Shown: positions 16,051 to 40,757 of the stretch, one piece after another
Position numbering within the stretch: position 1 is the stretch's first letter
Layout: each line of letters begins with the position of its first letter
Assembly (NCBI RefSeq): GCF_001940455.1
Contig: NZ_MKQR01000017.1
Coordinates: forward strand, 288,081-352,080
Direction of reading: 5' to 3'
DNA length: 64,000 nt
Origin: Actinokineospora bangkokensis
GTDB lineage: Bacteria > Actinomycetota > Actinomycetes > Mycobacteriales > Pseudonocardiaceae
Program-made: the position numbers and the translations under genes
The notes under the pieces: model-generated
Seen by the model: the letters and a program-made list of their open reading frames with translations, nothing else
Told to the model about the DNA's origin: nothing
The model's database searches: none

Positions 16051-17013
16051 GTGAAACGCTGGTCCACCAAGGATTTGACGGTCGTGCGGGAGCCCACCGA
16101 CGGGCGCCCCGGGGAAGGGGTGATGCGCTTCTCCGACCGGTACTCGGTGTTCGACTTCGGGGTGCTGCCCGACGAGGTCCCGGGCAAGGGCGCGGCGTCG
16201 TGCGCGATGGCGGTGCGCTCCTTCGAGCTGTTCGAGGCGGCCGGGGTGCGCACGCACTTCCTGGAGCAGGTGGCCGACGACGCCATCCGCATCCGGCTGC
16301 TCGACGTGGACACCGACGGGACCAAGGGGCGCACCGGGCCGGGGCGCACGATCCCGCTCCAGGTCATCTACCGCCTGGCGCTGCCCAAGGAGTCCTCGGT
16401 GCACCGCCGCGCCCGCGCGGGCACCCTGGACCACGCCACCGTCCCGGCCTACGCCGACGCGGGCGCGCCCTGGCTGTCGCGGCCGATGGTGGAGTTCACC
16501 ACCAAGTACGAGGAGACCGACCGGTTCATCAGCCGCGCCGAGGCCGAGCGGGTGGGCGCGGTGGACGCCGCCGACATCGCCGCGGTGGCCGAGCTGGCGG
16601 AGCGGGTCGCCGGGGTCGTCGACCGGCACTGCGCCGAGGTCGGGCTGACCCTCGTCGACGGCAAGGCCGAGTTCGGCTACGACGCCGACCGCGAGCCCAT
16701 CCTCATCGACCACGCGGGCACCCCGGACGAGAACCGCTTCTACCTCGGCGGTGTCCCCGTCTGCAAGGAACTGCTGCGCTACCTGCACCCCGGGCTGCGC
16801 GAGGTGGTGCAGCGCCTGGTGGCCGACGGCGTGCCGCGCGCGCAGTGGCCCGCCCAGCCGCCACTGCCCGCCGAGTCCGTGGCCGCCACGGCGGAGGTGT
16901 ACGCGCGGTTGGCCGAGGTGTGGACCGGCGGCGACCTCGACCGGCTGCACGAGGCCGTGCGCCGGTTCCAGGCCGCCGCGGGCTCCGACCTCGACGACCG
17001 CACCGGCCTGTGA
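16051..17013 (+). CDS. SAICAR-synthetase-like enzyme (PurC family), C-nucleoside branch
   Basis: A 320-residue member of the PurC family, which joins aspartate to a carboxylated nucleotide with ATP. Visible family features are SDRYSVFDFGVLPDEVPGKG near the start, FELFEAAGVRTHFLE, RPMVEFTTKYEETDRF and the metal/nucleotide segment LVDGKAEFGYD...ILIDHAGTPDENRF (canonical 'DEIlTPDSSRF'). It starts at GTG 16051 with GGGAGG upstream and heads a rightward run PurC-like, beta-RFAP-synthase-like, PurB-like. In this setting it would activate the carboxyl group of a pyrazole C-riboside and add aspartate, the first step toward the carboxamide. It is much longer than the second PurC-like protein at 28993-29730. 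Ordinary purine synthesis is unlikely to be its job given the neighbours. Confidence 0.88.
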   Translation: MKRWSTKDLTVVREPTDGRPGEGVMRFSDRYSVFDFGVLPDEVPGKGAASCAMAVRSFELFEAAGVRTHFLEQVADDAIRIRLLDVDTDGTKGRTGPGRTIPLQVIYRLALPKESSVHRRARAGTLDHATVPAYADAGAPWLSRPMVEFTTKYEETDRFISRAEAERVGAVDAADIAAVAELAERVAGVVDRHCAEVGLTLVDGKAEFGYDADREPILIDHAGTPDENRFYLGGVPVCKELLRYLHPGLREVVQRLVADGVPRAQWPAQPPLPAESVAATAEVYARLAEVWTGGDLDRLHEAVRRFQAAAGSDLDDRTGL

Positions 17014-17063
17014 CCGCGGCGGACACCCCCGGCACGACTCCACACCGACAGGAGGAACGCGCG

Positions 17064-18110
17064 ATGGCGCACGCCGAGCGGTTCGGCCCCGAGGGGTGGG
17101 CGGTGCGGGTCACCGCCCCCGCCAGGCTCAGCTTCACCCTGATCAACCTCGACGGGGAGTCCCTGCGGCGCAACGGGATCGCCGCCATGTCCGTGCGCGA
17201 CCCGCACCTGGTCGCGCGCGTGGCCGCCGTCCCCGGCGACGGCGCGGGCACCGGCGGCGTCGAGGTCGTCGGCACCGAGGAGGAGACGGCCGTCGAGCTG
17301 GCGGGCAAGCTCGCGCAGCTGCGCGAGCTGTGGGACGGGCCCGCCGTGCGCGTCGACGTCGAGCGCCCGCTGCCCCAGCACAGCGGGTTCGGCTCCAAGA
17401 CCACCTCGCTGCTGGCCATCGGCCACGCCTACGGCATCGTGTGCGGGCAGGACGTGCCGCTGCGCGAGCTGTCCCGGTTGCTCGGCCGCGGCCGCACCTC
17501 CGGCGCCAGCACCGGGCTGGCCGCCACCGGCGGGTTCCTCGTCGACGGCGGGCACCGCAACCCGCCGGAGTTCTTCGCCGCCCCGCAGGAGTTCCTGCGC
17601 CCCAGCCGGTTCGCCACCCCGGTCGCCCCGCCGGAGCCGGTGGTGCGGCTGCCGTTCCCGCCGTGGCCGATCCTGGTGCTGCTCACCGGGGGCAGGCACC
17701 TCGGCGGCACCGAGGAGCTGGAGTGGTTCAAGTCCGTCACGCCGATCCCGCACGCCGAGGCCGCCCGCACGGCGCAGCTGGTCTTCCTGGGCCTGGCCCC
17801 CGCTGTGGCCGAGGCCGACTACGACGGGTTCTGCGCCGCGGTCGACGCCATCACCTTCGGCAGCCACTTCAAGCGCGAGCAGGTCAAGGTCGCGGGCAGC
17901 GCGGTCGGTGACGTGCTCGACGCAGGCCGCGCCGAGCCGTCCATCGACGCCATCGCGCTCAGCGTCACCGGGCCGTCCTGCTTCGCCTTCACCCGCGACC
18001 CCGGGGCGGCGACGCGCTGGGCGCAGGGGCTGCGCGAGCGGGGCGCCATCCGCGACTTCTGGTTCACCACCGCGGACAACACCGGGTTGTCCGCGGGCTT
18101 CGCACCGTAG
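17064..18110 (+). CDS. Beta-RFAP-synthase-like C-glycoside synthase (ForT/PyfQ-type)
   Basis: A 348-residue GHMP-superfamily protein resembling beta-ribofuranosylaminobenzene 5'-phosphate synthase. VTAPARLSFTLINLDGESLRRNG matches that family's N-terminus, and PLPQHSGFGSKTTSLLAIG is its glycine-rich phosphate loop. The archaeal enzyme joins PRPP to p-aminobenzoate with loss of CO2. Homologues in formycin (ForT) and pyrazofurin (PyfQ) pathways do the same with a pyrazole dicarboxylate, making the C-C glycosidic bond. That role fits here, between PurC-like and PurB-like genes; it is the key evidence for a C-nucleoside product. The start ATG has AGGAGGAACGCGCG upstream. The assignment rests on motif similarity and context; an alignment would settle it. 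Confidence 0.85.
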   Translation: MAHAERFGPEGWAVRVTAPARLSFTLINLDGESLRRNGIAAMSVRDPHLVARVAAVPGDGAGTGGVEVVGTEEETAVELAGKLAQLRELWDGPAVRVDVERPLPQHSGFGSKTTSLLAIGHAYGIVCGQDVPLRELSRLLGRGRTSGASTGLAATGGFLVDGGHRNPPEFFAAPQEFLRPSRFATPVAPPEPVVRLPFPPWPILVLLTGGRHLGGTEELEWFKSVTPIPHAEAARTAQLVFLGLAPAVAEADYDGFCAAVDAITFGSHFKREQVKVAGSAVGDVLDAGRAEPSIDAIALSVTGPSCFAFTRDPGAATRWAQGLRERGAIRDFWFTTADNTGLSAGFAP

Positions 18111-18118
18111 AGGAACAG

Positions 18119-19549
18119 ATGACCACCAAGGAAACCGTCCCCGACGTGCTCGCCAGCCGGTACGCCTCGCCGGAGCTCGTCGCGCTGTGGGCGCCGCGCA
18201 ACCGCGTGGTGGCCGAGCGCCGGATGTGGCTGGCGGTGCTGCGCGCGCAGGCCGAGCTCGGCGTGGCGGTGCCCGAGCGGGCAGTCGCCGACTACGAGGC
18301 GGTGCTCGACCGGGTCGACCAGGAGTCGATCCTGCGCCGGGAGCGGGTGACCCTGCACGACGTCAAGGCGCGCATCGAGGAGTTCAACGAGCTCGCCGGG
18401 CACGAGCACGTGCACAAGGGCATGACCTCGCGCGACCTCACCGAGAACGTCGAGCAGATGCTGGTGCGCGAGAGCCTGGCCGCCATCCGGGTGCGCGCGG
18501 TCGCGGTGCTGACCCGCCTGGCCGCGCTGGCCACCGAGCACGCGGGCACCACCATCGCCGCGCGCACGCACAACGTCGCCGCGCAGGCCATCCCGCTGGG
18601 CAAGCGGTTCGCCACCGCCGCCGACGAGCTGCTGCTGGCCGTCGAGCGCGTGGAGGACCTGCTGCGCCGCTACCCGATGCGCGGGATCAAGGGCCCGGTC
18701 GGCACCCAGCAGGACATGCTCGACCTGTTCGACGGGGACAAGGCCAAGGTCGCCGCGCTGGAGGACCGGGTGGCCGAGCACCTGGGCTTCGAGCGGCGGC
18801 TGACCAGCGTCGGGCAGGTCTACCCGCGGTCGCTGGACTACGAGGTGGTCTCCGCGCTGGCCCAGCTCGCCTCGGCGCCCGCCAGCCTGGCCAAGACGGT
18901 GCGGCTGATGACCGGGCACGAGCTGGCCTCGGAGGGCTTCGCCGAGGGCCAGGTGGGGTCCTCGGCGATGCCGCACAAGATGAACCCGCGCAACAGCGAG
19001 CGGATCAGCGGGCTGGTGGTGCTGCTGCGCGGCTACGCCTCGATGGCGGGCGAGCTGATGGGCGACCAGTGGAACGAGGGCGACGTCAGCTGCTCGGTGG
19101 TGCGCCGGGTGGTGCTGCCGCAGTCGTTCTTCGCCATCGACGGCCTGCTCCAGACCACGCTGGCGGTGCTCGACGGGTTCGCCGCGTTCCCGCGGGTCAT
19201 CGCCGCCGAGCTGGACCGCTACCTGCCGTTCCTGGCCACGACGAAGATGCTCGTCGCGGCCGTGCGGACCGGGTTGGGCCGGGAGAAGGCGCACGAGCTG
19301 ATCAAGGAGCACGCGGTGGCCGCGGCGCTGCGGATGCGCGAGGGGCAGCCGGGCAACACCCTGGTGGCCGCCCTGGGCGCCGACCAGCGCTTCCCGCTCG
19401 ACGAGGCCGAGCTGACCGCCCTGCTCGCCGACCACACCGCCTTCACCGGGGTGGGCGTCGACCAGGTCGAGCAGGTCGTGGCCCGGGTCGCCACCCTGGT
19501 CGCTCGCTGCCCGGAGGCGGTCGACTACGCTCCGGAACCGGTGCTGTGA
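18119..19549 (+). CDS. Adenylosuccinate-lyase-like enzyme (PurB family)
   Basis: A 476-residue member of the fumarase/aspartase superfamily. HKGMTSRDLTENVEQ is the conserved region carrying the TS-D motif, HNVAAQAIPLGKRF the second, and GSSAMPHKMNPRNSERI the signature loop with the catalytic Ser. PurB removes fumarate from succinyl-amino intermediates and in purine synthesis acts twice, after PurC and after PurA. The cluster encodes both PurC-like and PurA-like proteins, so this single lyase could serve both steps on the pyrazole analogues. It starts 8 bases after the C-glycoside synthase stop with GAGGAAC as ribosome site. Its length is ordinary and the active-site loop intact. Confidence 0.92.
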   Translation: MTTKETVPDVLASRYASPELVALWAPRNRVVAERRMWLAVLRAQAELGVAVPERAVADYEAVLDRVDQESILRRERVTLHDVKARIEEFNELAGHEHVHKGMTSRDLTENVEQMLVRESLAAIRVRAVAVLTRLAALATEHAGTTIAARTHNVAAQAIPLGKRFATAADELLLAVERVEDLLRRYPMRGIKGPVGTQQDMLDLFDGDKAKVAALEDRVAEHLGFERRLTSVGQVYPRSLDYEVVSALAQLASAPASLAKTVRLMTGHELASEGFAEGQVGSSAMPHKMNPRNSERISGLVVLLRGYASMAGELMGDQWNEGDVSCSVVRRVVLPQSFFAIDGLLQTTLAVLDGFAAFPRVIAAELDRYLPFLATTKMLVAAVRTGLGREKAHELIKEHAVAAALRMREGQPGNTLVAALGADQRFPLDEAELTALLADHTAFTGVGVDQVEQVVARVATLVARCPEAVDYAPEPVL

Positions 19550-20892: not shown

Positions 20893-21591
20893 TCAGAAGT
20901 GGTCGAGCAGCTCGGGGAAGGTGCGCAGGGTCAGCACCCGGTCGTCGCCCTCGTCCAGCTCGTCGTGCTCCAGGCCCCAGGTGTTGTCGTTGGGGATGAA
21001 CACCGCGCACATGCCCACCGCGCGGGCGGGGCGGATGTCGGACTTGGGCGAGTTGCCGATCATCCAGGTCTGCTCGGGCTCCAGGCCGTGCTCGGAGACC
21101 AGCGCCGCGTAGGTCTCGGCGTTCTTCTCCGGCACGATGTGGATGTGCTCGAAGTGGTCGGACAGGCCCGAGGCGTCCAGCTTGCTCTGCTGCTCCTCGG
21201 TGTCGCCCTTGGTCAGCAGCAGCAGGGTGTAGCGCTTGCCCAGCTCGGCCAGGGTGTGCTCGACCCCGGGGATCAGCTCCACCTCGCGGCGCACCAGGGC
21301 CCCGGCCAGCTCGTCGATGGCGGCGCGCTCGCGCTCGTCGGCGGGGCGCTCGCTGAGCTTGGCGAAGCAGTCGTGCAGGCTGCGCAGCAGCATCTTGGCC
21401 CCGTAGCCGTGCGTGACGGCGTTGGCGGCCTCGATCTCGTCGAGCACCGCCCGCACCTGCGCGCGGTCGAGGGTGGGGTGGGCCAGCCAGTCCAGGAAGC
21501 CCTCGATCACCCGCTCGAACAGGACGTTGTTCTCCCAGAGCGTGTCATCGGCGTCGAAGATCAGCACCTTGGCTGATGCGGTCCGGCTCAC
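20893..21591 (-). CDS. HAD-superfamily hydrolase, probable nucleotide 5'-phosphatase
   Basis: A 232-residue HAD protein starting at about GTG 21591. Motif I is LIFDADDTLWENN (two catalytic Asp), motif II the Thr in LLLLTKGD, motif III the Lys in VPEKNAETY, and motif IV MIGNSPKSDIRPA. It belongs to the YjjG-like/phosphoglycolate-phosphatase type. C-nucleosides built through a beta-RFAP-synthase-like step arise as 5'-phosphates and need dephosphorylation before export; this is the only obvious phosphatase in the cluster. It is divergent from the amidohydrolase gene. Substrate assignment is inference. Confidence 0.88.
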   Translation of the reverse strand: MSRTASAKVLIFDADDTLWENNVLFERVIEGFLDWLAHPTLDRAQVRAVLDEIEAANAVTHGYGAKMLLRSLHDCFAKLSERPADERERAAIDELAGALVRREVELIPGVEHTLAELGKRYTLLLLTKGDTEEQQSKLDASGLSDHFEHIHIVPEKNAETYAALVSEHGLEPEQTWMIGNSPKSDIRPARAVGMCAVFIPNDNTWGLEHDELDEGDDRVLTLRTFPELLDHF

Positions 21592-22939: not shown

Positions 22940-23518
22940 TCACCCAGTGCTCGACCGGAACAACGCGGCCACCGAGGCCTCGTAAGCAGCGCTCACCTCG
23001 AACGCCTTCGCCGCCAACGCGAACCGCCGCTCCTGCGACACCCCTTCCGGCGACCCGCCCGCGGCGGCCAGTTCCGCCACCACCCCCGCGTAGTCGTCCG
23101 GGTCGCACAGCGGGACCACGTGCGCGCAGTTCTTCCCCGCGGCCCGCAGCATCGCGGGACCGCCCACGTCGATCTTCTCCCGGAACTGGTCCATCGACGA
23201 CGCCGCGGCGGGCAGCACGTAGTAGTTGCAGGCCACCAGGTGCACCCGCTCGACCCCGTGCTCGGCCAACTCCGACAGGTCGGGCTCGGCGTCGCGGGCC
23301 AGGATGCCCGCCATCACCGACACGGTCAGCGTCTTGACGCGCCCGCCGAGCATCGTGGGCACGCCCGCCAGGTCGGAGACGGCCCCGACGGACAGGCCCG
23401 CCTCGGCGATGGCGCGGCGGGTGCCCTCGGTGGCCACGACGTCCCACCCGAGGTCGAGCAGGCCCCCGGCCAGGACCTCGATGGAGCGCTTGTCGCTCAC
23501 GCCCAGGACTGCGAGCAC
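22940..23518 (-). CDS. IMP-cyclohydrolase-like domain protein (PurH N-terminal half only)
   Basis: A 192-residue protein equal to the N-terminal MGS-like cyclohydrolase domain of PurH; the C-terminal AICAR transformylase domain is absent. Family features are VLGVSDKRSIEVLAGGLLDL at the start, the ATEGTRRAI loop and GGRVKTLTVSVMAGILARD. In ordinary PurH the last segment reads KTLHPxxHGG; here the His-Pro and second His are replaced, suggesting a changed substrate or mechanism. The start is GTG 23518 with GAGGAG 9 bases upstream, 11 bases after the PurA-like stop on the same strand. It would close the pyrimidine ring of the pyrazolopyrimidine after formylation, which must come from another enzyme. 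Confidence 0.85.
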   Translation of the reverse strand: MLAVLGVSDKRSIEVLAGGLLDLGWDVVATEGTRRAIAEAGLSVGAVSDLAGVPTMLGGRVKTLTVSVMAGILARDAEPDLSELAEHGVERVHLVACNYYVLPAAASSMDQFREKIDVGGPAMLRAAGKNCAHVVPLCDPDDYAGVVAELAAAGGSPEGVSQERRFALAAKAFEVSAAYEASVAALFRSSTG

Positions 23519-23529: not shown

Positions 23530-24816
23530 TCAGCTGCGGGTGCGGGGGCCGCGGTCGATCAGGGCGTCGCGGTGGGCGCCGACCGAGACGAAGCGGACGT
23601 AGGTCTCCAGCAGGGACTCGACGCGCTCGACGTAGGCGCGCGCGGCGGCGGGCAGGTCGTCGTAGGAGCGGGCGCCGGTGATGTCGTCGTCCCAGCCGGG
23701 CAGCACCTCGTAGACCGGGGTGGAGCGCTCCAGGACGGCCGGGTCGGGGGTGAACGACGTGGTGCGGGCGCCGTCGCACTCGTAGGCGACGCACACCTTC
23801 AGCTCGCCGGTGCCGGTGAGCTGGTCGAGGTTGGTCAGGGCCACCTCGTCGGTGCCCTGCATGAGCGCGCCGTAGCGGGTGGCGACGCCGTCGAAGGCGC
23901 CGAGCCTGCGCGGGCGGTTGGTGGTGGCGCCGAACTCGCCCCACAGCTCGCGCAGCCGGTCGCCGGTCTCGGTGTCGAACTCGGTGACCAGCGGGCCCGC
24001 GCCGATGCAGCTGGAGAAGGCCTTGGTCACCCCCACCACCCGGTCCAGGCGCGCCCACGGCACGCCCATGCCCACCGGGGCGTGCGCGGTGAGGCAGGTG
24101 GAGGAGGTGGTGAAGGGGTAGATGCCGAAGTAGATGTCCTTGAGCGCGCCGAGCTGGCCCTCCGCGAGGACGGTGGCGCCGCGGGCGAGGGCGTCGCCGA
24201 GCAGGGTGGTCACGTCGCGCACGTGCGGGCGCAGCTGCTCGCGCAGGCCCGTCACCCAGTCGTGCACCTCGGCGACCACCAGCGGCTTCGCGCCGTAGAT
24301 GGTGGTGAGCCTGCTGTTGGCCCAGTCGAGCACCGAGGTGAGCCTGCGCTCGAGGTTCTCGTCGTCGAACAGCTCGCGCACCAGCAGGGTCTTCTTCATG
24401 ACCCGGTCGCCGTAGGCCGGGGAGATGCCCATCCGGGTGGAGCCGTAGCCGTCCTTGCCGAGCCGGACCTCCTCGGCGGCGTCGAGGTCGCGGTGGAAGG
24501 GGAAGCACACCGACGCCGCGTCGGAGACGACGACGCGCGCCGGGTCGCAGCCGTGCTCGACGACCGAGGCGACCTCCTGCAGGAAGGTCTCCACGTCGAC
24601 GACCATGCCGGGGCCGAGCACGCTGGTGGTGCCGGGGCGGAAGACGCTGCTGGGCAGGTTGTGCAGGCTGAACTTGCCCTCGTCGACGACGATGGTGTGC
24701 CCGGCGTTGCCCCCGCCGTGGTAGCGCACGACGAACTCGGCGTCGCCGCCGATGGCGTCGACCATCTTGCCCTTGCCCTCGTCGCCCCAGTTGAGGCCCG
24801 CCACGGCGGTCAGCAC
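23530..24816 (-). CDS. Adenylosuccinate-synthetase-like enzyme (PurA family)
   Basis: A 428-residue PurA homologue from GTG 24816. The GTP loop GLNWGDEGKGK with catalytic Asp and the GGGNAGHT loop with catalytic His are intact, so it should still use GTP and aspartate. Other canonical parts differ: GTTGRGIGPAY is GSTRMGISPAY, EGAQG is EGQLG, and DIDHGTYPYVTSS is DIYFGIYPFTTSS, all regions around IMP. This is expected if the substrate is the C-nucleoside analogue of IMP (formycin B 5'-phosphate). Together with the PurB-like lyase it would replace the oxo group by an amino group. It is co-directional with the PurH-like gene and the Rieske oxygenase (42-base gap). Confidence 0.9.
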   Translation of the reverse strand: MLTAVAGLNWGDEGKGKMVDAIGGDAEFVVRYHGGGNAGHTIVVDEGKFSLHNLPSSVFRPGTTSVLGPGMVVDVETFLQEVASVVEHGCDPARVVVSDAASVCFPFHRDLDAAEEVRLGKDGYGSTRMGISPAYGDRVMKKTLLVRELFDDENLERRLTSVLDWANSRLTTIYGAKPLVVAEVHDWVTGLREQLRPHVRDVTTLLGDALARGATVLAEGQLGALKDIYFGIYPFTTSSTCLTAHAPVGMGVPWARLDRVVGVTKAFSSCIGAGPLVTEFDTETGDRLRELWGEFGATTNRPRRLGAFDGVATRYGALMQGTDEVALTNLDQLTGTGELKVCVAYECDGARTTSFTPDPAVLERSTPVYEVLPGWDDDITGARSYDDLPAAARAYVERVESLLETYVRFVSVGAHRDALIDRGPRTRS

Positions 24817-33152: not shown

Positions 33153-33235
33153 CGGGGTCGGCACTCCTGTCGACGTGCTGGGGCTGTGGAGCTGGTGGAG
33201 CCGGGTGGCGGGCCCGCGCGGGGCCCGCCGACCGC

Positions 33236-34645
33236 TTACCGGTGGCCGAGCACGGCCATCGGGACGTCGTGGTCGGGGTCGGCGTCGGCCGCCGGGTGCC
33301 CCACCCAGTCCAGGGCGGCGCGCACGGCACCGGTGTCGTAGCGCTCGAAGCCCAGCAGCGAGTTCGCGATGGTGGCGCTGCGCCAGGCCAGCAGGCTCAG
33401 GTTCGGGTCGGCGACGCCGAAGCGGTGCCGGGCGGCGTTCTGCACGTACACCCGGTTCTGCTCGGGCCCGCGCCACTCCAGGCTGAAGTCGGCGCGCACG
33501 GCCAGTTCCCCGCCGGGCACCAGCAGCTCGCGCAGCCGGTGCAGCGGGGCGGGCAGGTCGTGGCGGTAGCCGGTGGCGCAGATGACCACGTCGACGTCCT
33601 CGGTGAGCCCGCTGCCGTCGCCCGCCAACCAGCCGGTGCGCAGCGCGCCCGCGGCGTCGGTGACCGAGGTGAGCCGGTGGCCCAGCAGCACCCGGCACGG
33701 GCGGTCCAGGCCGTCGAGCTCCTCCAGGTCGTAGAGCCGCTGGTAGATGGCCTCCAGCAGGGACGCCGACACCCCGTCGCTGGCCATCCGCTGCCGCTCG
33801 ACGAGCGCGGCGCGGCGGGCGGCGGGCAGGCCGTGGAAGTAGGTGCTGTAGTTCGGCACGAACAGCTCGTCGACGAACGGGGTGTCGTCCAGCGGCAGCA
33901 GGTTGTCCCGGGAGGTGCCCCAGAGCACCGCCGCGGGCCGGTCCGGGGTGCTCAGCAGGTGGTGCACGACCTCGGCGCCGCTCTGCCCGCCGCCGACGAC
34001 GGCCACCCGCAGCCCGGTGAAGTCGCGCGGCTGGGCGAGCACCTGCGAGGCGTGGAACACCCGGTGCGGCTCGAACCCGGTGGCGCAGGCGGGCAGCTTC
34101 GGGTCCAGGCCGGTGCCGGTGACGACGTTGCGGGCGCGGTAGGTGCCCTCGCCGGTCTCGACGGTGAACAGCTCGCCGTCCCAGTCCACCGCGCGCACGT
34201 CCACTCCGAAGCGCAGGTTGGGCACCCGCTCGGCGGCCCACTGGCAGTACTGCTCGAACTCCCGGCGCGGCACCTTGGAGCGGCCGGTGACCAGCAGCCG
34301 GTAGAACCGCTTGTTCTCCACCAGGAACGCGGGGAACGAGTACGGGCTGGTCGGGTCGACCGGGGTCACCAGGTCCTTGAGGTAGTGCACCTGCATCTGC
34401 ACGTCGGGCAGCATCAGCCCGGCGTGCCAGGTGAAGCGCTCCGCGCGGTCGAGGAACACCGCCCTGACGCCGTCCCCGCCGGGGGCGCCGGGACCGGCGG
34501 TGCGCTCGGCGCCCGCCAGCAGCGCGGCGAGGCTGAGGTTGGACGGGCCGATGCCGATGCCGACCACGTCGAGCACCTCGCCGGTGGGCGGGGCGGTCGG
34601 GTCGGGGGTGCCCGGGTGCGGGCTGCTCATCGGGTGCGTGGTCAT
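33236..34645 (-). CDS. L-lysine N6-monooxygenase (flavin-dependent N-hydroxylase)
   Basis: A 469-residue class-B flavin N-hydroxylase. GIGIGPSNLSLAALL is the FAD motif with the family Pro-Ser-Asn, VVGGGQSGAEVVHHL the NADPH motif, and CATGYRHDLP the C-terminal ATGY element. These enzymes hydroxylate the side-chain nitrogen of lysine or ornithine. Siderophore synthesis is the best known use, but next to a cupin/MetRS fusion it supplies N6-hydroxylysine for N-N bond formation. The first 25 residues are Pro/Thr-rich and probably disordered. The ATG overlaps the upstream saccharopine-dehydrogenase-like stop by 4 bases (ATGA), so the two are coupled. Confidence 0.92.
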   Translation of the reverse strand: MTTHPMSSPHPGTPDPTAPPTGEVLDVVGIGIGPSNLSLAALLAGAERTAGPGAPGGDGVRAVFLDRAERFTWHAGLMLPDVQMQVHYLKDLVTPVDPTSPYSFPAFLVENKRFYRLLVTGRSKVPRREFEQYCQWAAERVPNLRFGVDVRAVDWDGELFTVETGEGTYRARNVVTGTGLDPKLPACATGFEPHRVFHASQVLAQPRDFTGLRVAVVGGGQSGAEVVHHLLSTPDRPAAVLWGTSRDNLLPLDDTPFVDELFVPNYSTYFHGLPAARRAALVERQRMASDGVSASLLEAIYQRLYDLEELDGLDRPCRVLLGHRLTSVTDAAGALRTGWLAGDGSGLTEDVDVVICATGYRHDLPAPLHRLRELLVPGGELAVRADFSLEWRGPEQNRVYVQNAARHRFGVADPNLSLLAWRSATIANSLLGFERYDTGAVRAALDWVGHPAADADPDHDVPMAVLGHR

Positions 34646-35850
34646 CGTGGTGCGCCTCCGGTTCCGGCGGCGCCCGGGGACGCCGGTGCGGTGTCGCCGC
34701 CGTCGGACGACCAGCGCACGCCCAGGGCGGCGAGGTCGGCGGTCAGTCGGGTGAACAGCTGCGGGGTGGTGGCCAGGTGCGGGCGGACCCACCCGGTGCC
34801 CGCCACCGCGCCCTCGGCGAGCGCGGCGGTGGCCCAGGCGAGGGTGAAGCCGGTGGTGCGGGCCATCGCGGGGAGCCCGGTGGCCGGGTCCTGGCGGTCG
34901 ACGAGCAGGGCGCGCAGGGCGAGCACGCGGCCCTCGGCGTCGGGGCGGCCGCGGCCGACGACGTCGAGCACCACCAGGTCGCGGTCGTCGGGCCCGGCCC
35001 GCAGGCGGGGCGCGAGCACGTGCTCGACGACCCGCTTCGGGGCCACGCTGACGCCGTCGACCTCCAGCGGCCGCTCGTCGAGCAGCCCGAGGTCGGCCAG
35101 GCCGGTGACGGCCGCGGCGAACCCGGGCCAGCGCAGGGTCTTCTGGGTGCAGTCGGCGCCCGCCAGCGCCGGGTGCTCGGCCAGCCAGGGCACCATGCCG
35201 TCGTGGTAGGCCTCCAGGGTGCCCACGCCGGGCACCGCCACCTGCTCGACGCCGGAGAACCGGGGGTGCTCCACGACCGCCCCGCCCGCCACCGCCAGCG
35301 CGGCGCGCTGCGCGACGGGCAGGTGGTTGGCCAGCTCCCCGCCGAAGAACGCGGTGTAGCCCCAGGGCGGGCGCGGGGCGTGCGGGACGCCGCCGCAGCG
35401 CACCTCGACCGCCGCGGGCCCCTCCCCGGTCAGCTCGACGATCCGCCGGGCGACGTCGGTGGCGACCAGCTCGGTGAGCCCGGGCTCCAGCCCGATCGGC
35501 AGCAGCACCGGGACGCGGCCGTCGGCGGCGGCGTGCAGGTCGGCCAGCTCCTCGGTGGGGGGCCGGGTGATGCTGGCCAGCGGGACCCCGGCGGCGGCGG
35601 CCTCGGCCACCGCCGCCCGGGTGGCCGACCAGGGCACCGCCGCGGCCACCGCGGCGCACCCGGGCAGCGCGGCGGCGAGGTCGTCGGCGACCCGGACCCG
35701 GCGGCCGGTGCCGTCGAGCCACCGGGCGAGCCCGGCCGCCCGGTCGCGGTCCCGGTCGACGAGGGTGATGCCGCTGGTGCGCGGGTCGCGCGCGAGCGCG
35801 TGGGCGGCGCCGCGGCCCATCTGGCCGCAGCCGAGCAGCGTGACCTCCAC
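34642..35850 (-). CDS. Saccharopine-dehydrogenase-like oxidoreductase
   Basis: A 402-residue protein from GTG 35850 with GGAGAGG upstream. TLLGCGQMGRGAAHALA is the Rossmann loop; the middle (GLEPGLTELVATDVARRI) and later regions match saccharopine / lysine 6-dehydrogenase relatives. Saccharopine dehydrogenase cleaves the C-N bond joining the lysine side chain to an amino acid. The hydrazine adduct of N6-hydroxylysine and an amino acid has the same geometry, so this enzyme may split it, leaving a hydrazino acid and aminoadipate semialdehyde. Coupling (ATGA) with the lysine hydroxylase supports involvement at this point. The last 20 residues are low-complexity. Confidence 0.82.
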   Translation of the reverse strand: MEVTLLGCGQMGRGAAHALARDPRTSGITLVDRDRDRAAGLARWLDGTGRRVRVADDLAAALPGCAAVAAAVPWSATRAAVAEAAAAGVPLASITRPPTEELADLHAAADGRVPVLLPIGLEPGLTELVATDVARRIVELTGEGPAAVEVRCGGVPHAPRPPWGYTAFFGGELANHLPVAQRAALAVAGGAVVEHPRFSGVEQVAVPGVGTLEAYHDGMVPWLAEHPALAGADCTQKTLRWPGFAAAVTGLADLGLLDERPLEVDGVSVAPKRVVEHVLAPRLRAGPDDRDLVVLDVVGRGRPDAEGRVLALRALLVDRQDPATGLPAMARTTGFTLAWATAALAEGAVAGTGWVRPHLATTPQLFTRLTADLAALGVRWSSDGGDTAPASPGAAGTGGAPR

Positions 35851-35939: not shown

Positions 35940-37184
35940 TCAGCCCGCGGTGACGCGGGCGGTGACGACCTCGGGCACCGCGTCGAGCAGCGCGTCGAGA
36001 CCCGCGCGGTGCACGTGGCGCGCGCACACCGCGGCGACCCGCTGGCTGCCGAAGTCGGCGGGCGGCAGCTTCACCGCCGCACCCACCGGCACCTCGGTGA
36101 AGACGTGGTCGTAGCCGGGGGCGTCGACCAGCTCGGCCACCCCGTCCAGCCCGGCGTAGGTGCCCGCGGACCCGGCCAGCACGAACCGCAGCCCCGCGTG
36201 CAGGTCCCGGTCGGGGGTCAGCCGCAGCGGCTCGCCGGTGGCGACCCGGATGACGTTCTCGAAGAACGGGATGCCGGTGGCGGCGGGCACCAGGTGCGAG
36301 CCGATGTAGTCACCGGCGGGCCGGGCGGCCACCTCCAGGAACCGCATGCCGCGCTCGCCCCACTTGGCCTCCAGGTGGAAGGCGCAGTTGTCGAAGCCCA
36401 GCGCCCGCACCACCTCGCCCGCCTGCCTGCTGATCGTGGCCTGCGCGTCGGTGGGCAGCGCGCTCGGGAAGCGGTGGGTCAGCTCCAGGTGGAACGGGTC
36501 GGTGGTCACCTTGTCGGTGATGCCGACGACGTGCACCTGCCCGGCGGCGACGAAGCCCTCCACCGACAGCTCCACCCCGTCGAGGTACTCCTCGACGATG
36601 AACTCGGCGCCGAACTGCTGGAACACCGGGTCGAAGCCGGGGTCGGCGATGCGCAGCAGCTCGGTCATCGCCGGTTCCAGGTCGGCCTCCGAGCGCAGCT
36701 CGAAGATGCCCTTGGACCCCGAGGCGCCGGTGGGCTTGACCACGGCGGGCAGCCCGATCCGCTCGACCGCGGCGCGCAGCCCGGCCAGGTCGGTGACCCG
36801 CTCGTAGGCGGGCAGCACGTCGACCTTCCCGGAGATGGCCTGCTTCATCACGTACTTGTTGCGCGCGGCCAGGGCGGCCTCGGCGGGCAGCGCGGGCAGC
36901 CCGAGGTCGGTGGCGATCGCGCTGACCAGCCGCACGTCGACCTCGGTGAAGTTGGGCACGCCCGCGATGTCGTGCTCGGCGGCCAGTTCCCTGGCCAGCT
37001 TGACCGACCGCTCGGTGTCGTAGGTGTCGACCTGGTGGAAGCTGTCGACCAGCGGTTCGGCGAACGCGGGCAGCGCGCGGCCCAGCACCACCACCCGGTA
37101 CCCGAGCGCCCGAGCGGCGAGCAGGGCCTCCTGGCCCTCCCGCTTGATCCGCCTGAGGTTCACGAACAGGACACTGCGGCTCAC
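35940..37184 (-). CDS. ATP-grasp ligase
   Basis: A 414-residue ATP-grasp protein from GTG 37184 with GGAGG upstream. RNKYVMKQAI marks the start of the ATP-grasp fold, LPAVVKPTGASGSKGIF is the glycine-rich ATP loop with the conserved Lys, and EVAARPAGDYIG near the end of the fold is the magnesium/phosphate region (usually E-NxR; here E-x-x-ARP). It resembles L-amino-acid ligases and carboxylate-amine ligases. It heads the leftward run ligase, saccharopine-DH-like, lysine hydroxylase, fusion. It may activate a carboxylate of the glutamate-derived unit for ring closure or carry a protecting amino acid; a PurP-like formylating role is less likely by sequence. Confidence 0.82.
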   Translation of the reverse strand: MSRSVLFVNLRRIKREGQEALLAARALGYRVVVLGRALPAFAEPLVDSFHQVDTYDTERSVKLARELAAEHDIAGVPNFTEVDVRLVSAIATDLGLPALPAEAALAARNKYVMKQAISGKVDVLPAYERVTDLAGLRAAVERIGLPAVVKPTGASGSKGIFELRSEADLEPAMTELLRIADPGFDPVFQQFGAEFIVEEYLDGVELSVEGFVAAGQVHVVGITDKVTTDPFHLELTHRFPSALPTDAQATISRQAGEVVRALGFDNCAFHLEAKWGERGMRFLEVAARPAGDYIGSHLVPAATGIPFFENVIRVATGEPLRLTPDRDLHAGLRFVLAGSAGTYAGLDGVAELVDAPGYDHVFTEVPVGAAVKLPPADFGSQRVAAVCARHVHRAGLDALLDAVPEVVTARVTAG

Positions 37185-37388: not shown

Positions 37389-38483
37389 ATGCGGGTCGTC
37401 ACCATCGGAGCGGGCGCCATCGGCACCGCGACCGCCCTGCGCCTGCGCCAAGCGGGCGCCGAGGTCGTCCACGTCGCCGCCACCGCCCCCCGCGACACCC
37501 TGTCCGCGCACAGCTTCTCGTGGGCCAACGGCATCGACGAGGGGTCCGAGGCCTACTGGCACCTGAGCCTGGAGGCCCTCGCCGCGCACCGGCGCCTCGC
37601 CGCCGAGACCGACCCGGCGTGGCTGGGCACCGGCGGCAACCTGCACTGGGCCGCCGACCCCGCGGGCGAGGAATCCCTGGCCACCGCGGCGAAGGGCTAC
37701 CGCGCCCTGGACTACCCGGTGCGGGAGCTGACCACCGCGCAGGCGCTGGAGCTGGAACCGGGACTGCGCCTGGACGACGCGGTGGGCCCCATCCGCTTCT
37801 ACCCCGACGACGTGTTCCTCCACACGGACCTGATGCTCGACGCGGTGGCGCGGGCGGCGACCGGGCTGGGGGTGCGGCAGCGGTTCGGCGAGCCGGTCGC
37901 CGGGATCGCCGCCGACGGCCGCGGCGTGCGGCTGGCGTCGGGGGAGGTCGTCGGGGCCGACGCGGTGGTGTGCTGCGCGGGCAGGGGGAACGCGGAACTG
38001 CTGGCGGGGTTGGGGATCACCCTCCCGCTGCTGGCGCCGGGCAGCCCGCGGCGGCTGACGCACGGGCTGATGGTGCGCACGACGCCGGTCGAGGCGGGGG
38101 TGCGGCGGGTGGTCCACGCGCCGCACCTGAGCATCCGGCCCGCGTCGGGGGGCGCGCTGATGTTGCACTGCCACGACCTGGACTGGTTGTTGAACGAGGG
38201 GGCCGACCCGGGGGAGCTGGCGGAGCGGGTGGTGTCGCGGCTGCCGGGGGTGCTGCCCTCGGCGGGTGGGGCGCGGGTGGCGTCGTACCTCGCCGCCGTG
38301 CGGCCGGTGCCGGTGGACGGGATGACGATCGTGGGGCCGGTGGCGGAGGGGTCGGCGGTGTCCGTGGTGGCCACGCACAGCGGGGTCACGTTGGCGGCGG
38401 TGCTGGCGGAGGTGGTGGTGGGGGACCTGGTGGGGCGACCGCACCCGCTGGCTGATGGGTTCCGGTTGTCGCGGTTCGGGTGA
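37389..38483 (+). CDS. FAD-dependent amine/amino-acid oxidase (DAAO/glycine-oxidase-like)
   Basis: A 364-residue flavoprotein. MRVVTIGAGAIGTATALRLR is the FAD-binding start, with GGAGGAACTGAC as ribosome site. Other DAAO-family features are the EALAAHRRLAAETDPAWLGTGG region, and VRPVPVDGMTIVGPVAEGSAVSVVATHSG near the end. In s56-p1-type hydrazine pathways a flavin oxidase of this family oxidises the N-N adduct so that a free hydrazino acid is released, so this gene and the saccharopine-dehydrogenase-like gene are alternative or sequential candidates for that step. It is divergent from the ATP-grasp gene, with a 204-base gap. Confidence 0.85.
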   Translation: MRVVTIGAGAIGTATALRLRQAGAEVVHVAATAPRDTLSAHSFSWANGIDEGSEAYWHLSLEALAAHRRLAAETDPAWLGTGGNLHWAADPAGEESLATAAKGYRALDYPVRELTTAQALELEPGLRLDDAVGPIRFYPDDVFLHTDLMLDAVARAATGLGVRQRFGEPVAGIAADGRGVRLASGEVVGADAVVCCAGRGNAELLAGLGITLPLLAPGSPRRLTHGLMVRTTPVEAGVRRVVHAPHLSIRPASGGALMLHCHDLDWLLNEGADPGELAERVVSRLPGVLPSAGGARVASYLAAVRPVPVDGMTIVGPVAEGSAVSVVATHSGVTLAAVLAEVVVGDLVGRPHPLADGFRLSRFG

Positions 38484-38593: not shown

Positions 38594-38739
38594 GCTCGAT
38601 GTGGTGGTTGTGCTTGACCGGGGCCCCTGCGGCGATCATGTGCTCGGGGTGGGGAAAAGGTGAGGCCTTCGGCCCCACCCCCCGGCCGTGGGTAGCACAT
38701 GATCGCCTTCCCCGGTCAAGCACAACCACCACATCGAGC
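38594..38739. repeat. Long nested palindromic element, copy C (near-identical to copy A)
   Basis: Outer arms GCTCGATGTGGTGGTTGTGC... (38594-38623) and their complement (38710-38739) pair perfectly over 30 bases; the inner GCGATCATGTGCT arms and loop hairpin (GGCC-TTC-GGCC) match copy A with only about five differences. The flank upstream (CTCGCCTTCGGCTTCGG) and downstream (AGGGCCGTAGCCGGGCCG, TCCGTAGGTGG) also match. It fills most of the 364-base gap between the flavin oxidase and the convergent IPNS-like gene. Confidence 0.85.
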
Positions 38740-38799: not shown

Positions 38800-38847
38800 G
38801 GGGGGTGGGGCTGGGGAAGGCTTGGGGGGCTTGGGGTTGGGGGTGGG
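38800..38847 (+). other. G-rich tract able to form G-quadruplexes
   Basis: Seven or more runs of three to six G separated by one to four bases, on the plus strand, ending directly at the stop codon of the leftward IPNS-like gene. It may slow polymerase or act as a terminator for read-through from the left. Confidence 0.4.
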
Positions 38848-39828
38848 CTAGCTGTCCAGGGCGGTGCCCAGGCCCGCGAAGCGGTTGGCGATGAAATCGC
38901 CCCAGGTGGGGTCGAGGGTCTTGAGGCCATCGGGGCCGATCTGCCACTGCTTCGCGGCGTGGGGCGGGTAGGCGAACATGACCGAGGACATGCGGACGTA
39001 CTCGCCGTCGCCGAAGGGTTGGGGGGTTTGGAGGGTGGAGCGGTGGACGCGGTGGGTGGAGGGGCGGAAGCGGTTCTCCGAGGCGTGGGTGAGCATGCGG
39101 CCGACGTTGCAGAGCAGGACGTCGGTGCCCGCGATGATGGGTTCGACCCAGGTGCCGTCGTGCAGGACGTACTGGAGGCCGCCGTCGGACGGGGGGAGTT
39201 GGAGGCCGAGCATCTGGATGCCGGAGTGCTCGTGGGCGAGGACCTCGCGGTCGCCGGTGCCGCGGTAGTGGATGACGCGCAGGTTGGTGGCGCCGCGGTC
39301 GAGGTCGAGGCTGGGGGCGCCGTCGGGGAGCATGCCGCGGATGACGTCGCTGAAGGTGGTGATGACCTGGAAGGCGGTGTCGAACACGGCGCGGGCGTGG
39401 CCCGCGAACTCCGGGAACGCGCGCAGCAGGGCGTCGGCGCCCTCCGGGCGGTTGTCGAGCATGCCGCCGGAGACGTGCACGAACTCCTTCGGGTCCGGCA
39501 CGCCCTTGGCCAGGCGGGGGATCTCGGAGTTGTACGGGAAGAACCCGTGGGTGCCGCCGTTGGACAGCTGGGGGGTGCGCTCGTAGGCGTAGTCGTCGAG
39601 GGACGGGTCGGTCGACAGGCAGGCGTCGCGGAAGCTGGACATCATCGCCCGCACCCGGTCACCGATCCCGGGCACCTCCACCGACATGAAGCCCCAGCCC
39701 TCCAACTGCTCGCGGATCGGGTCCGCGGCCGCGGTCAGGTCGGCGCGCACGTCGGTGGCGCGCACCACCGGCACCGACCCCGCGAGGGGGAAGGCGGTCA
39801 CGTTCGCTTCGGTCTCCACTGCATCCAT
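38848..39828 (-). CDS. Isopenicillin-N-synthase-like non-heme iron oxygenase with unusual metal motif
   Basis: A 326-residue member of the 2-oxoglutarate/Fe(II) or IPNS-like superfamily. The N-terminal DIOX_N-type region (VPVVRATDVRADL ... EQLEGWGFMSVEVPG) and C-terminal jelly-roll are clear. The metal site reads AHEHSGIQMLGLQ where the family has HxDxGxxTLL, so the acidic ligand appears replaced by His. The distal His lies in PSTHRVHRS and the 2-oxoglutarate RxS in YVRMSSV. The enzyme may therefore use a different ligand set or be inactive in the usual chemistry. The start ATG 39828 has GGAG upstream. It is probably co-transcribed with the ParB-domain regulator upstream and could oxidise a pathway intermediate. 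Confidence 0.83.
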   Translation of the reverse strand: MDAVETEANVTAFPLAGSVPVVRATDVRADLTAAADPIREQLEGWGFMSVEVPGIGDRVRAMMSSFRDACLSTDPSLDDYAYERTPQLSNGGTHGFFPYNSEIPRLAKGVPDPKEFVHVSGGMLDNRPEGADALLRAFPEFAGHARAVFDTAFQVITTFSDVIRGMLPDGAPSLDLDRGATNLRVIHYRGTGDREVLAHEHSGIQMLGLQLPPSDGGLQYVLHDGTWVEPIIAGTDVLLCNVGRMLTHASENRFRPSTHRVHRSTLQTPQPFGDGEYVRMSSVMFAYPPHAAKQWQIGPDGLKTLDPTWGDFIANRFAGLGTALDS

Positions 39829-39875
39829 GGTCGCTCCAGGGGGACGTCGGTCCAACGGCAAGGGGGTCGCGGCGC

Positions 39876-40757
39876 TCAGGCGGTGCGCTCGTCGAGGTGG
39901 TCGGCGAACTGCGCCCACGCCTCGGCGCAGTCCCTGGCGATGTCGGCCACCGCGGTCGCGCAGTGCGCGGGGGTGTTGTCCGCGATGCGCTTCCAGGTGG
40001 CGGGGGTGATCGAGTGCAGGTCGAGCAGGCGCAGCAGGGCGCGGCCGCACTCGCTGAACCGCAGCGACGGGTCGCGCCGCAACCGCTGCAGGTCCAGCGG
40101 GCGGTTGGCGGTGCCCGCGTCGGCGGCGCGCTGCGCGCCGCGCACCCGCACCGGCCGCTCCTCGGCGGCCGGTGCCACCGGTTCCGGCGCGGGCGCCGGG
40201 CGGGCGGGCACCCGGCGGGTGCGGCCGTCGCGGCCGACCCGCCCGGTCGACTGAGGAATTTCCGCACTTGACCGCGCGCGCACCGCGCCCGCGGTCTTCG
40301 GCGACAGCCCGGTGGCGGCGGCGACCCGCCGGTCGGACCACTCCGGGAACGACCGCAGGATGCGCGCCGCGGCGGCGGTGCGGTCGGCCAGGGTCAGCGG
40401 CAGGCCGTGCTCGACGTTGGCGCGCACCGACTGCACGAACGCGGCGGCCTCGTCGCCGTCGAAGAACAGCACGGCGATGTCGGTCGCGCCGCGCAGCTGC
40501 GCCGCGCGCAGCCGGTGCACCCCGTCGAGCACGCGCATCGTCTGCCGGTGCACCAGGATCGGCGGCAGCGCGGGCAGCACCTCGGCGAGCGCGCGGACGT
40601 GGCCGTCGTCGAGGCCCGCGCGCCGGGGCGAGCGGTCGTAGGCGAGCGCGGCGATGGCGACCCGGGTGCCCTCCTCGGCCACCCTGGTCGGAGCGGGTTG
40701 CCCGGTCCGCTGCGCGGGGACCGCGGACAGCAGGCGGGACTCGGTCAGCTGGTTCAC
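39876..40757 (-). CDS. ParB-domain transcriptional regulator (StrR/NovG-like), probable cluster activator
   Basis: A 293-residue protein from GTG 40757. Residues about 25-125 are a ParB-like domain (VLDGVHRLRAAQLRGATDIAV), followed by a helix-turn-helix region (DRRVAAATGLSPKTAGAVRAR) and a C-terminal helical domain. This order is that of StrR-type pathway-specific activators of streptomycin and aminocoumarin clusters. It is the only regulator in the 16-41 kb region, so it is the likely switch for the nucleoside cluster. A tandem array of four 17-18-base units lies directly upstream (40782-40852) and may be a binding array or part of the leader. An upstream in-frame extension through the array is possible but has no good start. 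Confidence 0.85.
   Translation of the reverse strand: MNQLTESRLLSAVPAQRTGQPAPTRVAEEGTRVAIAALAYDRSPRRAGLDDGHVRALAEVLPALPPILVHRQTMRVLDGVHRLRAAQLRGATDIAVLFFDGDEAAAFVQSVRANVEHGLPLTLADRTAAAARILRSFPEWSDRRVAAATGLSPKTAGAVRARSSAEIPQSTGRVGRDGRTRRVPARPAPAPEPVAPAAEERPVRVRGAQRAADAGTANRPLDLQRLRRDPSLRFSECGRALLRLLDLHSITPATWKRIADNTPAHCATAVADIARDCAEAWAQFADHLDERTA

What the first reader, a model, noticed from the sequence alone, without database searches (positions are those of the whole stretch)
16051..40757. A hybrid cluster for a formycin-type C-nucleoside and a coformycin/pentostatin-type deaminase inhibitor
Seen: a beta-RFAP-synthase-like gene between PurC-like and PurB-like genes, PurA-like and PurH-N-like genes, a lysine N6-hydroxylase next to a cupin/MetRS fusion, and a HisG-like/SDR/PurC-like trio. 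Known: ForT/PyfQ-type enzymes make C-nucleosides, N6-hydroxylysine-dependent fusions make N-N bonds, and PenA-PenB-PenC make 1,3-diazepine nucleosides that inhibit adenosine deaminase. Inference: one locus makes an adenosine-like C-nucleoside and its protector. Gene order is mixed between modules, and Rieske, enamidase-like, GSAM-like and IPNS-like genes may indicate a variant product.
Basis: partly seen in the sequence, partly recalled or inferred. Interest (0 to 1): 0.92.

Follow-up and report, generated by a model that had tools for sequence, protein, structure and literature searches.

The report
Formycin gene cluster carrying nucleotide halogenase
A soil actinomycete carries a formycin-type gene cluster (a known kind of adenosine-mimic antibiotic locus) that, unlike its relatives examined here, also holds an enzyme gene for attaching chlorine to adenine nucleotides, so it probably makes formycin together with a chlorinated partner that protects it.

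Summary
ForT is 70% identical to crystallised S. kaniharaensis ForT; the "GSAM-like" gene is ForI; nine further genes, Rieske and amidohydrolase among them, recur in 9 of 11 other ForT loci, including S. resistomycificus, a reported formycin/coformycin source. Joint formycin-coformycin loci are published, so that core is a new member of a known kind. Genome statistics identify the host as Actinokineospora bangkokensis 44EHW.

The diazepine trio (HisG-like, SDR, PurC-like) groups with two family relatives apart from the S. resistomycificus type, and the PF08282 phosphatase found in 7 of 7 other loci with the SDR-PurC pair is missing.

Best explanation: formycin A plus a 2'-chloropentostatin (adechlorin)-type deaminase inhibitor; no product was measured. 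Rivals: unchlorinated protector, or chlorinated formycin. New variant of a known kind.

The parts
14386..14937 (-). NUDIX-domain protein (g14)
   Evidence: Pfam NUDIX 3.1e-9; 57-76% in 5 of 11 other ForT loci
15000..15950 (-). PfkB-family kinase (g15)
   Evidence: Pfam PfkB; 51-62% in 8 of 11 other ForT loci
16120..17013 (+). PurC-like, ForA-type (g16)
   Evidence: Pfam SAICAR_synt; 59-76% in 9 and 41-42% in 2 of 11 loci; 32% to the other copy in the genome
17064..18110 (+). ForT, C-glycoside synthase (g17)
   Evidence: phmmer vs PDB 6yqq 8e-145, 70% identity; tree
18119..19549 (+). PurB-like lyase (g18)
   Evidence: Pfam; clade with G239/G289, apart from the other PurB of the genome
19599..20786 (+). 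MFS exporter (g19)
   Evidence: Pfam MFS_1; 43-75% in 7 of 11 loci
20893..21567 (-). HAD-family phosphatase (g20)
   Evidence: Pfam Hydrolase/HAD_2; 57-70% in 5 of 11 loci
   Evidence: Pfam Amidohydro_1; 57-75% in 9 of 11 loci
22940..23518 (-). PurH N-terminal-like (g22)
   Evidence: Pfam MGS + start of AICARFT; 44-73% in 8 of 11 loci
23530..24816 (-). PurA-like adenylosuccinate synthetase (g23)
   Evidence: Pfam 8.6e-140; 42% to the other PurA of the genome, 63-79% to six cluster copies
24859..26082 (-). Rieske oxygenase (g24)
   Evidence: Pfam Rieske + LigXa_C; 68-80% in 9 of 11 loci
26347..27351 (+). ForF-type phosphoglycerate-dehydrogenase-like (g25)
   Evidence: Pfam 2-Hacid_dh; 64-85% in 7 of 11 loci
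27387..28256 (-). HisG-like phosphoribosyltransferase, PenA/AdeC-type by inference (g26)
   Evidence: NCBIfam TIGR00070; separate long-branched clade with G239/G289
28296..28979 (-). SDR dehydrogenase, PenB-type by inference (g27)
   Evidence: Pfam adh_short; clade with G239/G289
28993..29682 (-). second PurC-like, PenC-type by inference (g28)
   Evidence: Pfam SAICAR_synt; clade with G239/G289
29766..31067 (-). ForI aminotransferase (g29)
   Evidence: phmmer vs ForI 6ssd 1.3e-177; 63-77% in 7 of 11 loci, 29% in G293
31122..33164 (-). ForJ cupin-MetRS hydrazine synthetase (g30)
   Evidence: Pfam Cupin_2 + tRNA-synt_1g; 58-70% in 9 of 11 loci
33236..34645 (-). ForK lysine N6-hydroxylase (g31)
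   Evidence: Pfam Lys_Orn_oxgnase 1.9e-97; 58-69% in 9 of 11 loci, 31% in G293
34642..35850 (-). saccharopine-dehydrogenase-like (g32)
   Evidence: Pfam; 52-66% in 9 of 11 loci
35940..37184 (-). ATP-grasp ligase (g33)
   Evidence: Pfam ATP-grasp_4; 65-73% in 9 of 11 loci
37389..38483 (+). FAD (DAO-type) oxidase (g34), hydrazine cleavage by analogy
   Evidence: Pfam DAO; 46-51% in 9 of 11 loci
38594..38739 (.). 146-bp element with perfect 30-bp inverted repeat between g34 and the halogenase
38848..39819 (-). AdaV/AdeV-type Fe/2OG nucleotide 2'-halogenase (g35)
   Evidence: phmmer vs AdaV 9.2e-139; active-site residues; no homologue in the 11 other ForT loci as fetched
39876..40757 (-). ParB/StrR-like putative regulator (g36)
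   Evidence: no Pfam match; weak PDB ParB hits E 0.0098-0.018; DGVHRLRAA motif and HTH-like stretch by eye; found in G239 and G289 only; StrR likeness is recalled
40920..42251 (-). luciferase-like monooxygenase 1 (g37)
   Evidence: Pfam; 70-75% in 8 of 11 loci
42305..43123 (-). luciferase-like monooxygenase 2 (g38)
   Evidence: Pfam; 45-51% in 8 of 11 loci
43705..45312 (+). FAD_binding_2 dehydrogenase (g39)
   Evidence: Pfam 2.8e-77; 57-73% in 9 of 11 loci

Best explanation
One locus (14386-45312) makes two nucleosides. (1) A formycin-type C-nucleoside: lysine is N6-hydroxylated (ForK), joined to glutamate by the cupin-MetRS fusion (ForJ), cleaved by the FAD oxidase and carried to the aminopyrazole dicarboxylate (ForI, ForF and others), C-ribosylated with PRPP by ForT, then built into the adenine-like ring by PurC-, PurB-, PurH- and PurA-like copies. 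(2) A 1,3-diazepine adenosine-deaminase inhibitor that protects the first: the AdaV-type halogenase turns dAMP into 2'-chloro-dAMP; the dedicated HisG-like enzyme couples PRPP to the 2'-modified adenine nucleotide; histidine-pathway-like steps follow; the PurC-like enzyme closes the diazepine ring and the SDR reduces it, giving 2'-chloropentostatin (adechlorin). Shown here: gene identities, active-site conservation, shared and unshared gene content, clades. Inferred from published homologues: each reaction. Not shown: expression, products, and that the halogenase feeds this trio.
For: ForT and ForI match the crystallised formycin enzymes; nine core genes recur in 9 of 11 other ForT loci, one of them S. 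resistomycificus DSM 40133; PMC8724604 names S. resistomycificus NRRL 2290 as a formycin/coformycin source. ForI, ForF, PurA- and PurH-like genes are present, so the formycin rather than the pyrazofurin branch (PMC8724604 sections 8, 9). Halogenase: 207 of 307 aligned AdaV residues identical; H194, H252, G196 (HXG), R177, R237, D105 and the six dAMP/dGMP-discriminating positions N175, A272, Y273, I299, R302, F303 all the same (positions from PMC11186838, and PMC12766721). Diazepine side: SDR and PurC-like trees split window+G239+G289 from the five other loci, S. resistomycificus among them, 100/100 in both; the HisG-like gene of the same three loci is a clade far from the four presumed housekeeping HisGs, and no HisG was found in the S. 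resistomycificus, S. pyxinae or Streptacidiphilus loci. Dedicated hisG homologues are reported in adechlorin, pentostatin and pyrazomycin clusters (PMC13055916), PenA being linked with coupling PRPP to dATP (PMC12648386).
Against: No metabolite data. The halogenase sits in a Luc2-Luc1-g36-halogenase run, not beside the trio, and could be silent or serve another pathway. AdeK (PriA-like), which accompanies adeV in published ade clusters, has no counterpart among 55 of the 56 called window genes scanned with Pfam. G239/G289 carry the same HisG clade without a halogenase, so that HisG need not mean chlorination. PenA, AdeC and cof sequences could not be fetched, so the clades are named by context; PMC12648386 says that the S. 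kaniharaensis cof cluster strikingly resembles pen, which blurs the distinction I draw. In the pyrazofurin producer the coformycin-type genes gave no detected product (PMC8724604). Micromonospora ForT loci also have a HisG-like gene, grouped with the housekeeping ones (that tree's bootstrap had not settled). Without the PF08282 phosphatase the last dephosphorylation is unassigned.
Confidence: 0.6

Rival explanations
1. Formycin plus an unchlorinated diazepine (coformycin or pentostatin), as in known producers; the halogenase makes 2'-chloro-dAMP/2'-chlorodeoxyadenosine for a separate purpose or is a recent, unused arrival.
For: The core is the same as in known formycin/coformycin loci. The trio is shared with G239 and G289, in whose fetched stretches no halogenase was found. 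The halogenase lies next to a repeated palindromic element and in the slot between g36 and g34, which is 71 and 45 bases wide in G239 and G289, as a late insertion would.
Against: The halogenase reading frame is intact with 21 of 22 printed active-site-region positions identical to AdaV, which an unused gene would not be expected to keep for long; it is 56 bp behind g36 on the same strand.
Confidence: 0.22
2. The halogenase acts on the C-nucleoside side: a 2'-deoxyformycin nucleotide is chlorinated to 2'-chloro-2'-deoxyformycin 5'-phosphate.
For: The enzyme family recognises a purine base and a 5'-phosphate (PMC11186838), and formycin 5'-phosphate is an adenylate mimic made in the same cell; the gene lies next to the formycin gene g34.
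Against: The characterised members act on 2'-deoxynucleotide monophosphates; formycin is a ribonucleotide and no ribonucleotide reductase was matched among 55 of 56 called window genes. Residues at the base and phosphate sites equal those of the dAMP enzyme, with no sign of a new base.
Confidence: 0.1
3. A pyrazofurin-type rather than formycin-type C-nucleoside.
For: G289, which shares the trio, has no ForI, ForF, PurA- or PurH-like match in the 60 kb fetched, as expected of pyrazofurin; hisG homologues are reported in pyrazomycin clusters (PMC13055916). G289's ForT lies inside the same set as the window's, so ForT alone does not separate the two products.
Against: The window has ForI, ForF, PurA- and PurH-like genes, and its ForT pairs with G239, which also has them (90/90).
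Confidence: 0.04

Closest known systems
Formycin/coformycin clusters (foc, Nocardia interforma; for/cof, Streptomyces kaniharaensis; S. resistomycificus locus)
   Same: ForT, ForI, ForF, cupin-MetRS, lysine hydroxylase, Pur-like copies, SDR + PurC-like pair in one stretch (gene by gene comparison only with the S. resistomycificus locus and six other named records)
   Different: Window adds an AdaV-type halogenase, a HisG of another clade and a ParB-like putative regulator; lacks the PF08282 phosphatase and the sigma-factor-like gene seen in six loci; trio of a separate clade
Adechlorin (2'-chloropentostatin) cluster ade/ada of Actinomadura/Nonomuraea sp. ATCC 39365
   Same: AdaV-type dAMP halogenase together with HisG-like and SAICAR-synthetase-like genes and a pathway said to resemble pen
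   Different: ade pairs the protector with 2'-amino-2'-deoxyadenosine and carries adeK; the window pairs it with a C-nucleoside and shows no PriA-like gene in 55 of 56 called genes scanned
Pyrazofurin/pyrazomycin clusters (prf/pyr)
   Same: ForT-type C-nucleoside genes plus hisG homologue and coformycin-type genes in one cluster (PMC8724604 section 9; PMC13055916)
   Different: Window has the formycin-branch genes ForI, ForF, PurA- and PurH-like, and a halogenase
Pentostatin/vidarabine cluster pen
   Same: PenA-PenB-PenC trio composition (PMC12648386 section 5)
   Different: Partner nucleoside is Ara-A; no halogenase is mentioned in the section read

Membership tests
Formycin biosynthetic cluster | ForT-type C-glycoside synthase | tested here: met
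   70% identity to 6yqq and same set in the tree
Formycin biosynthetic cluster | N-N bond genes: lysine N6-hydroxylase and cupin-MetRS fusion | tested here: met
Formycin biosynthetic cluster | ForI and ForF (branch to the aminopyrazole; pyrazofurin goes through HDCP instead) | tested here: met
   ForI 6ssd 1.3e-177; 2-Hacid_dh
Formycin biosynthetic cluster | dedicated PurA/B/C/H-like copies distinct from housekeeping | tested here: met
   PurC 32%, PurA 42%, PurB 68% to the other copy in the genome; PurB and PurA trees put cluster copies apart. PurC by identity only; PurH-like not tested against housekeeping
Formycin biosynthetic cluster | strain makes formycin A | not testable with these tools
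   no metabolite data
Coformycin (cof) type diazepine module | SDR and SAICAR-synthetase-like pair | tested here: met
Coformycin (cof) type diazepine module | same clade as the S. resistomycificus pair | tested here: not met
   separate clade with G239/G289 in both trees, 100/100
Adechlorin (ade) type diazepine module | AdeV/AdaV halogenase with intact active site | tested here: met
Adechlorin (ade) type diazepine module | HisG-like (AdeC), SDR and SAICAR-like (AdeA) genes | tested here: inconclusive
   All three classes present, but AdeA/AdeC sequences could not be fetched for direct comparison
Adechlorin (ade) type diazepine module | adeK (PriA-like) gene | tested here: not met
   no HisA/PriA-family match among 55 of the 56 called window genes scanned with Pfam; the 30-aa ORF left out
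dAMP 2'-halogenase (AdaV family) | HXG motif and dAMP-type residues at six discriminating positions | tested here: met
   positions from PMC11186838
dAMP 2'-halogenase (AdaV family) | activity on dAMP | not testable with these tools
   PMC11186838 lists BJP25 among identified dAMP halogenases; that it is this gene is inferred

The most novel reading that the evidence does not exclude
The locus makes a halogenated C-nucleoside: the AdaV-type enzyme chlorinates a 2'-deoxyformycin nucleotide, giving 2'-chloro-2'-deoxyformycin, besides or instead of a chlorinated diazepine; this would be a naturally chlorinated C-nucleoside antibiotic.
Probability: 0.1. Interest if true: 0.85.

Novelty: new variant of a known kind. 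Interest (0 to 1): 0.55.

Why it matters
It joins two known nucleoside chemistries, C-nucleoside assembly and enzymatic 2'-chlorination of adenine nucleotides, in one locus of a cultured type strain in which gene disruption has been reported (PMC6273641, abstract). If the reading is right, a protector-protege pair (formycin with a chlorinated deaminase inhibitor) that I did not see in the papers found here becomes directly testable by LC-MS and one gene deletion. It also gives a natural setting for a halogenase known from enzyme work, and a comparative rule to test: a dedicated HisG with its own SDR/PurC clade marks 2'-modified (pentostatin/adechlorin-type) rather than ribo (coformycin-type) protectors.

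Tried and rejected
Rejected: IPNS-like for 38848-39819 (AdaV at 9e-139 against at best 2e-10 for other 2OG enzymes). Rejected: that Rieske, amidohydrolase and GSAM-like genes signal a variant. Rejected: cluster PurA/PurB/PurC-like genes as stray housekeeping copies. Led nowhere: first genome-contig scan with ForT alone, no relative; ForT in the genus, 1 of 16, itself; ForT in an order sample, 1 of 397, itself; AdaV homologues elsewhere, 1 of 297 family genomes, itself, 0 of 295 genomes of the genus of S. resistomycificus (the tool warns that an empty answer without a positive control shows nothing), none in plasmids; the PurC-like pair member in a class sample, 1 of 394, itself. So no ade or pen locus could be fetched for comparison. 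A plasmid search with the HisG-like protein gave 59 records, all under 60% identity; of the 10 listed 8 are annotated hisG, best 31.6%. PDB searches with the SDR, Rieske and PurC-like proteins gave only general family relatives in the lists shown. The AlphaFold model of g36 was poor (mean pLDDT 49.5), so no fold search was run. No Rfam family; promoter/terminator scan of 38400-43800 empty. Key papers on the for and cof clusters were not held, nor did I see the AdaV structure paper; what I recall of the S. kaniharaensis cof pathway (branching from histidine biosynthesis without a dedicated HisG) is recall only and not used as a test.


Full report
What is there. Gene calling by codon usage gave 56 genes in the window. 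In all, 55 of the 56 genes were scanned; a 30-aa ORF was left out.

Where it comes from. The window lies in an assembly of 7,453,713 bases in 32 contigs, one of them 931,456 bases long. The published draft of Actinokineospora bangkokensis 44EHW has exactly these numbers (PMC6273641, passages read). Its table of 35 clusters (section read) lists one 'nucleosid' cluster; its scaffold numbers do not match the contig numbers used here, so I do not map it. The words formycin and nucleoside have no occurrence in that paper's main text.

The formycin side. ForT is 70% identical to the S. kaniharaensis enzyme of known structure; the aminotransferase's best structure match is ForI. I collected 11 other ForT loci: 7 named ones from a scan of genome contigs and 4 unnamed ones among 297 genomes of a family sample (5 hits including the window's own). 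Between 33 and 60 kb of each was fetched. Nine genes (PurB-like, amidohydrolase, Rieske, cupin-MetRS, lysine hydroxylase, saccharopine-dehydrogenase-like, ATP-grasp, DAO-type, FAD-binding) occur at 46% identity or more in 9 of these 11; ForT and PurC-like in 11 of 11; ForI and ForF at 63% or more in 7 of 11; the two luciferase-like genes in 8 of 11. The two exceptions, G293 and G126, are more distant ForT loci; G293 has remote matches (25-31%) to the lysine hydroxylase, ForI, ATP-grasp and PurB. Some absences are contig or fetch ends: the CBMA123 contig ends in the MetRS gene, the OV450 contig is 33 kb, and the S. resistomycificus stretch ends after ForF. S. resistomycificus (strain NRRL 2290 in the paper, DSM 40133 in the record used here) is named as a source of formycin A and coformycin, and joint loci are published for N. 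interforma and S. kaniharaensis (PMC8724604, section 8 read).

Own-genome searches found another copy of each: PurC-like at 32%, PurB at 68% (and a 26% match on a third contig), PurA at 42% identity; I take these as the housekeeping genes. In the PurB tree the window copy groups with G239 and G289 (100/100) while the other copy groups with two PDB adenylosuccinate lyases (98/94); the remaining cluster PurBs form further groups, so cluster PurBs as a whole are not shown to be one clade. In the PurA tree the window and the six close cluster copies are together (100/99), the distant G126 copy on the other side with the housekeeping one, both on long branches. The housekeeping sample is small. In the ForT tree the window pairs with G239 (90/90) inside an 11-row set (100/100) that holds the S. 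kaniharaensis chain and also G289. No PyfQ sequence was available.

The halogenase. Of 307 aligned AdaV residues, 207 are identical (67.4%). Both iron histidines, the glycine of the HXG motif, the phosphate arginines R177 and R237, D105, and all six positions that separate dAMP from dGMP halogenases are the same; of 22 positions printed, one differs (AdaV N101, window K105), for which I saw no role in the passages read (roles from passages of PMC11186838, and PMC12766721, the latter with a numbering shift of two that I inferred). PMC11186838 (section 6 read) sets aside DI270, ADK38 and BJP25 as already identified dAMP halogenases, citing a 2022 paper that I have not seen; BJP25 is the A. bangkokensis prefix and G000 has a single AdaV-like gene, so this gene has most likely been assayed as an enzyme. 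No homologue was found in the fetched stretches of the 11 other ForT loci (best E 1.4).

The diazepine side. The SDR + PurC-like pair is in 7 of the 11 other loci. In both trees the window, G239 and G289 form one clade (100/100) apart from the five others, S. resistomycificus among them. A HisG-like gene is in 4 of the 7: G239 and G289 (67%, 66%), same clade as the window's, and the two Micromonospora loci (31%, 30%), which group with the four presumed housekeeping HisGs (bootstrap not settled in that tree). In the S. resistomycificus, S. pyxinae and Streptacidiphilus loci none was found, and each of these genomes gave one HisG match, on another contig; the S. resistomycificus one is a 282-aa ORF next to a 94-aa ORF, as expected of hisG beside hisE, though the small ORF was not tested. 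A HAD phosphatase of Pfam family PF08282 is in 7 of 7 loci with the pair and matches none of the 55 window genes scanned; the strongest similarity was 33% over 110 residues (E 7e-4) to a TetR-type regulator at 52285-53022. The rest of the genome was not searched for it. Reviews link PenA with coupling PRPP to dATP (PMC12648386, section 5 read) and report hisG homologues in adechlorin, pentostatin and pyrazomycin clusters (PMC13055916, passages read). A dedicated HisG with its own partner clade therefore points to a 2'-modified adenine nucleotide as substrate, and the halogenase supplies exactly that. This chain is inference; against it, PMC12648386 calls the cof cluster strikingly similar to pen, and coformycin-type genes in the pyrazofurin cluster gave no detected product (PMC8724604, section 9 read).

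Position of the halogenase. It stands 56 bp behind g36 on the same strand, in a run Luc2-Luc1-g36-halogenase, 364 bp from the convergent DAO gene. In G239 and G289 g36 and DAO are neighbours, 71 and 45 bases apart by the gene calls. The extra gap in the window holds a palindromic element with a perfect 30-bp stem, second copy at 1742-1878 (DNA fold z = -10.2). This fits a late insertion of the halogenase gene, but the order of events is not shown.

Print status. Searches of the held library listed no paper that I recognised as describing a formycin locus with a halogenase; I judged by titles, abstract starts and the passages cited. PMC13055916 mentions adeV homologues in several Streptomyces clusters and has no mention of Actinokineospora in its main text. 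The library lacks most subscription papers, so the context may be in print.

Verdict. A formycin-type locus, complete by comparison with its relatives, with an intact nucleotide halogenase gene and a diazepine trio apart from the S. resistomycificus type; most likely formycin plus 2'-chloropentostatin. New variant of a known kind.

Noticed in passing
L033-L035 (G289:C10:76000-135999): ForT locus with lysine hydroxylase, cupin-MetRS, HisG/SDR/PurC trio but no ForI, ForF, PurA- or PurH-like match in the 60 kb fetched: looks like a pyrazofurin-type cluster in the window's family.
   Followed up: partly
L039-L041 (G126:C46:406000-465999): A distant ForT homologue (44-46%) with PurC-, PurA- and PurH-like, PfkB, HAD, luciferase-like, TPP-enzyme, CoA-transferase and acyl-CoA dehydrogenase genes, but no lysine hydroxylase or cupin-MetRS match: perhaps a C-nucleoside with another base.
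   Followed up: partly
L036-L038 (G293:C218:1-55000): A distant ForT homologue (51-52%) with PurH, two DegT aminotransferases, UDP-sugar dehydrogenase, xylose-isomerase-like and lysine/ornithine hydroxylase genes nearby: an unfamiliar C-nucleoside-like cluster.
   Followed up: partly
window 1742-1878 and 38594-38739: Two copies of a palindromic element with 26-30-bp arms (0 expected in shuffles); the second lies between the DAO gene and the halogenase.
   Followed up: partly
L044:4786-5382 and counterparts in five more loci: A family of about 200 aa between ForI and ForF is in 6 of 11 ForT loci; its M. okii member is a sigma-70-type factor. No counterpart was found in window, G239 or G289, which have the ParB-like g36 instead: perhaps a regulator swap.
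   Followed up: partly
window 8413-12764: Run of WXG100/PPE/EspC/EspG-like genes (type VII secretion kind) left of the cluster.
   Followed up: no
window 3390-5273: Glycosyl hydrolase family 30 enzyme with a ricin-type lectin domain.
   Followed up: no
window 54228-55421: Erythromycin-esterase-family protein next to a MerR-type regulator.
   Followed up: no
window 47620-50712: Ser/Thr protein kinase and amino-acid permease genes right of the cluster, not shared with the other ForT loci apart from a 27% partial permease match in G126.
   Followed up: no
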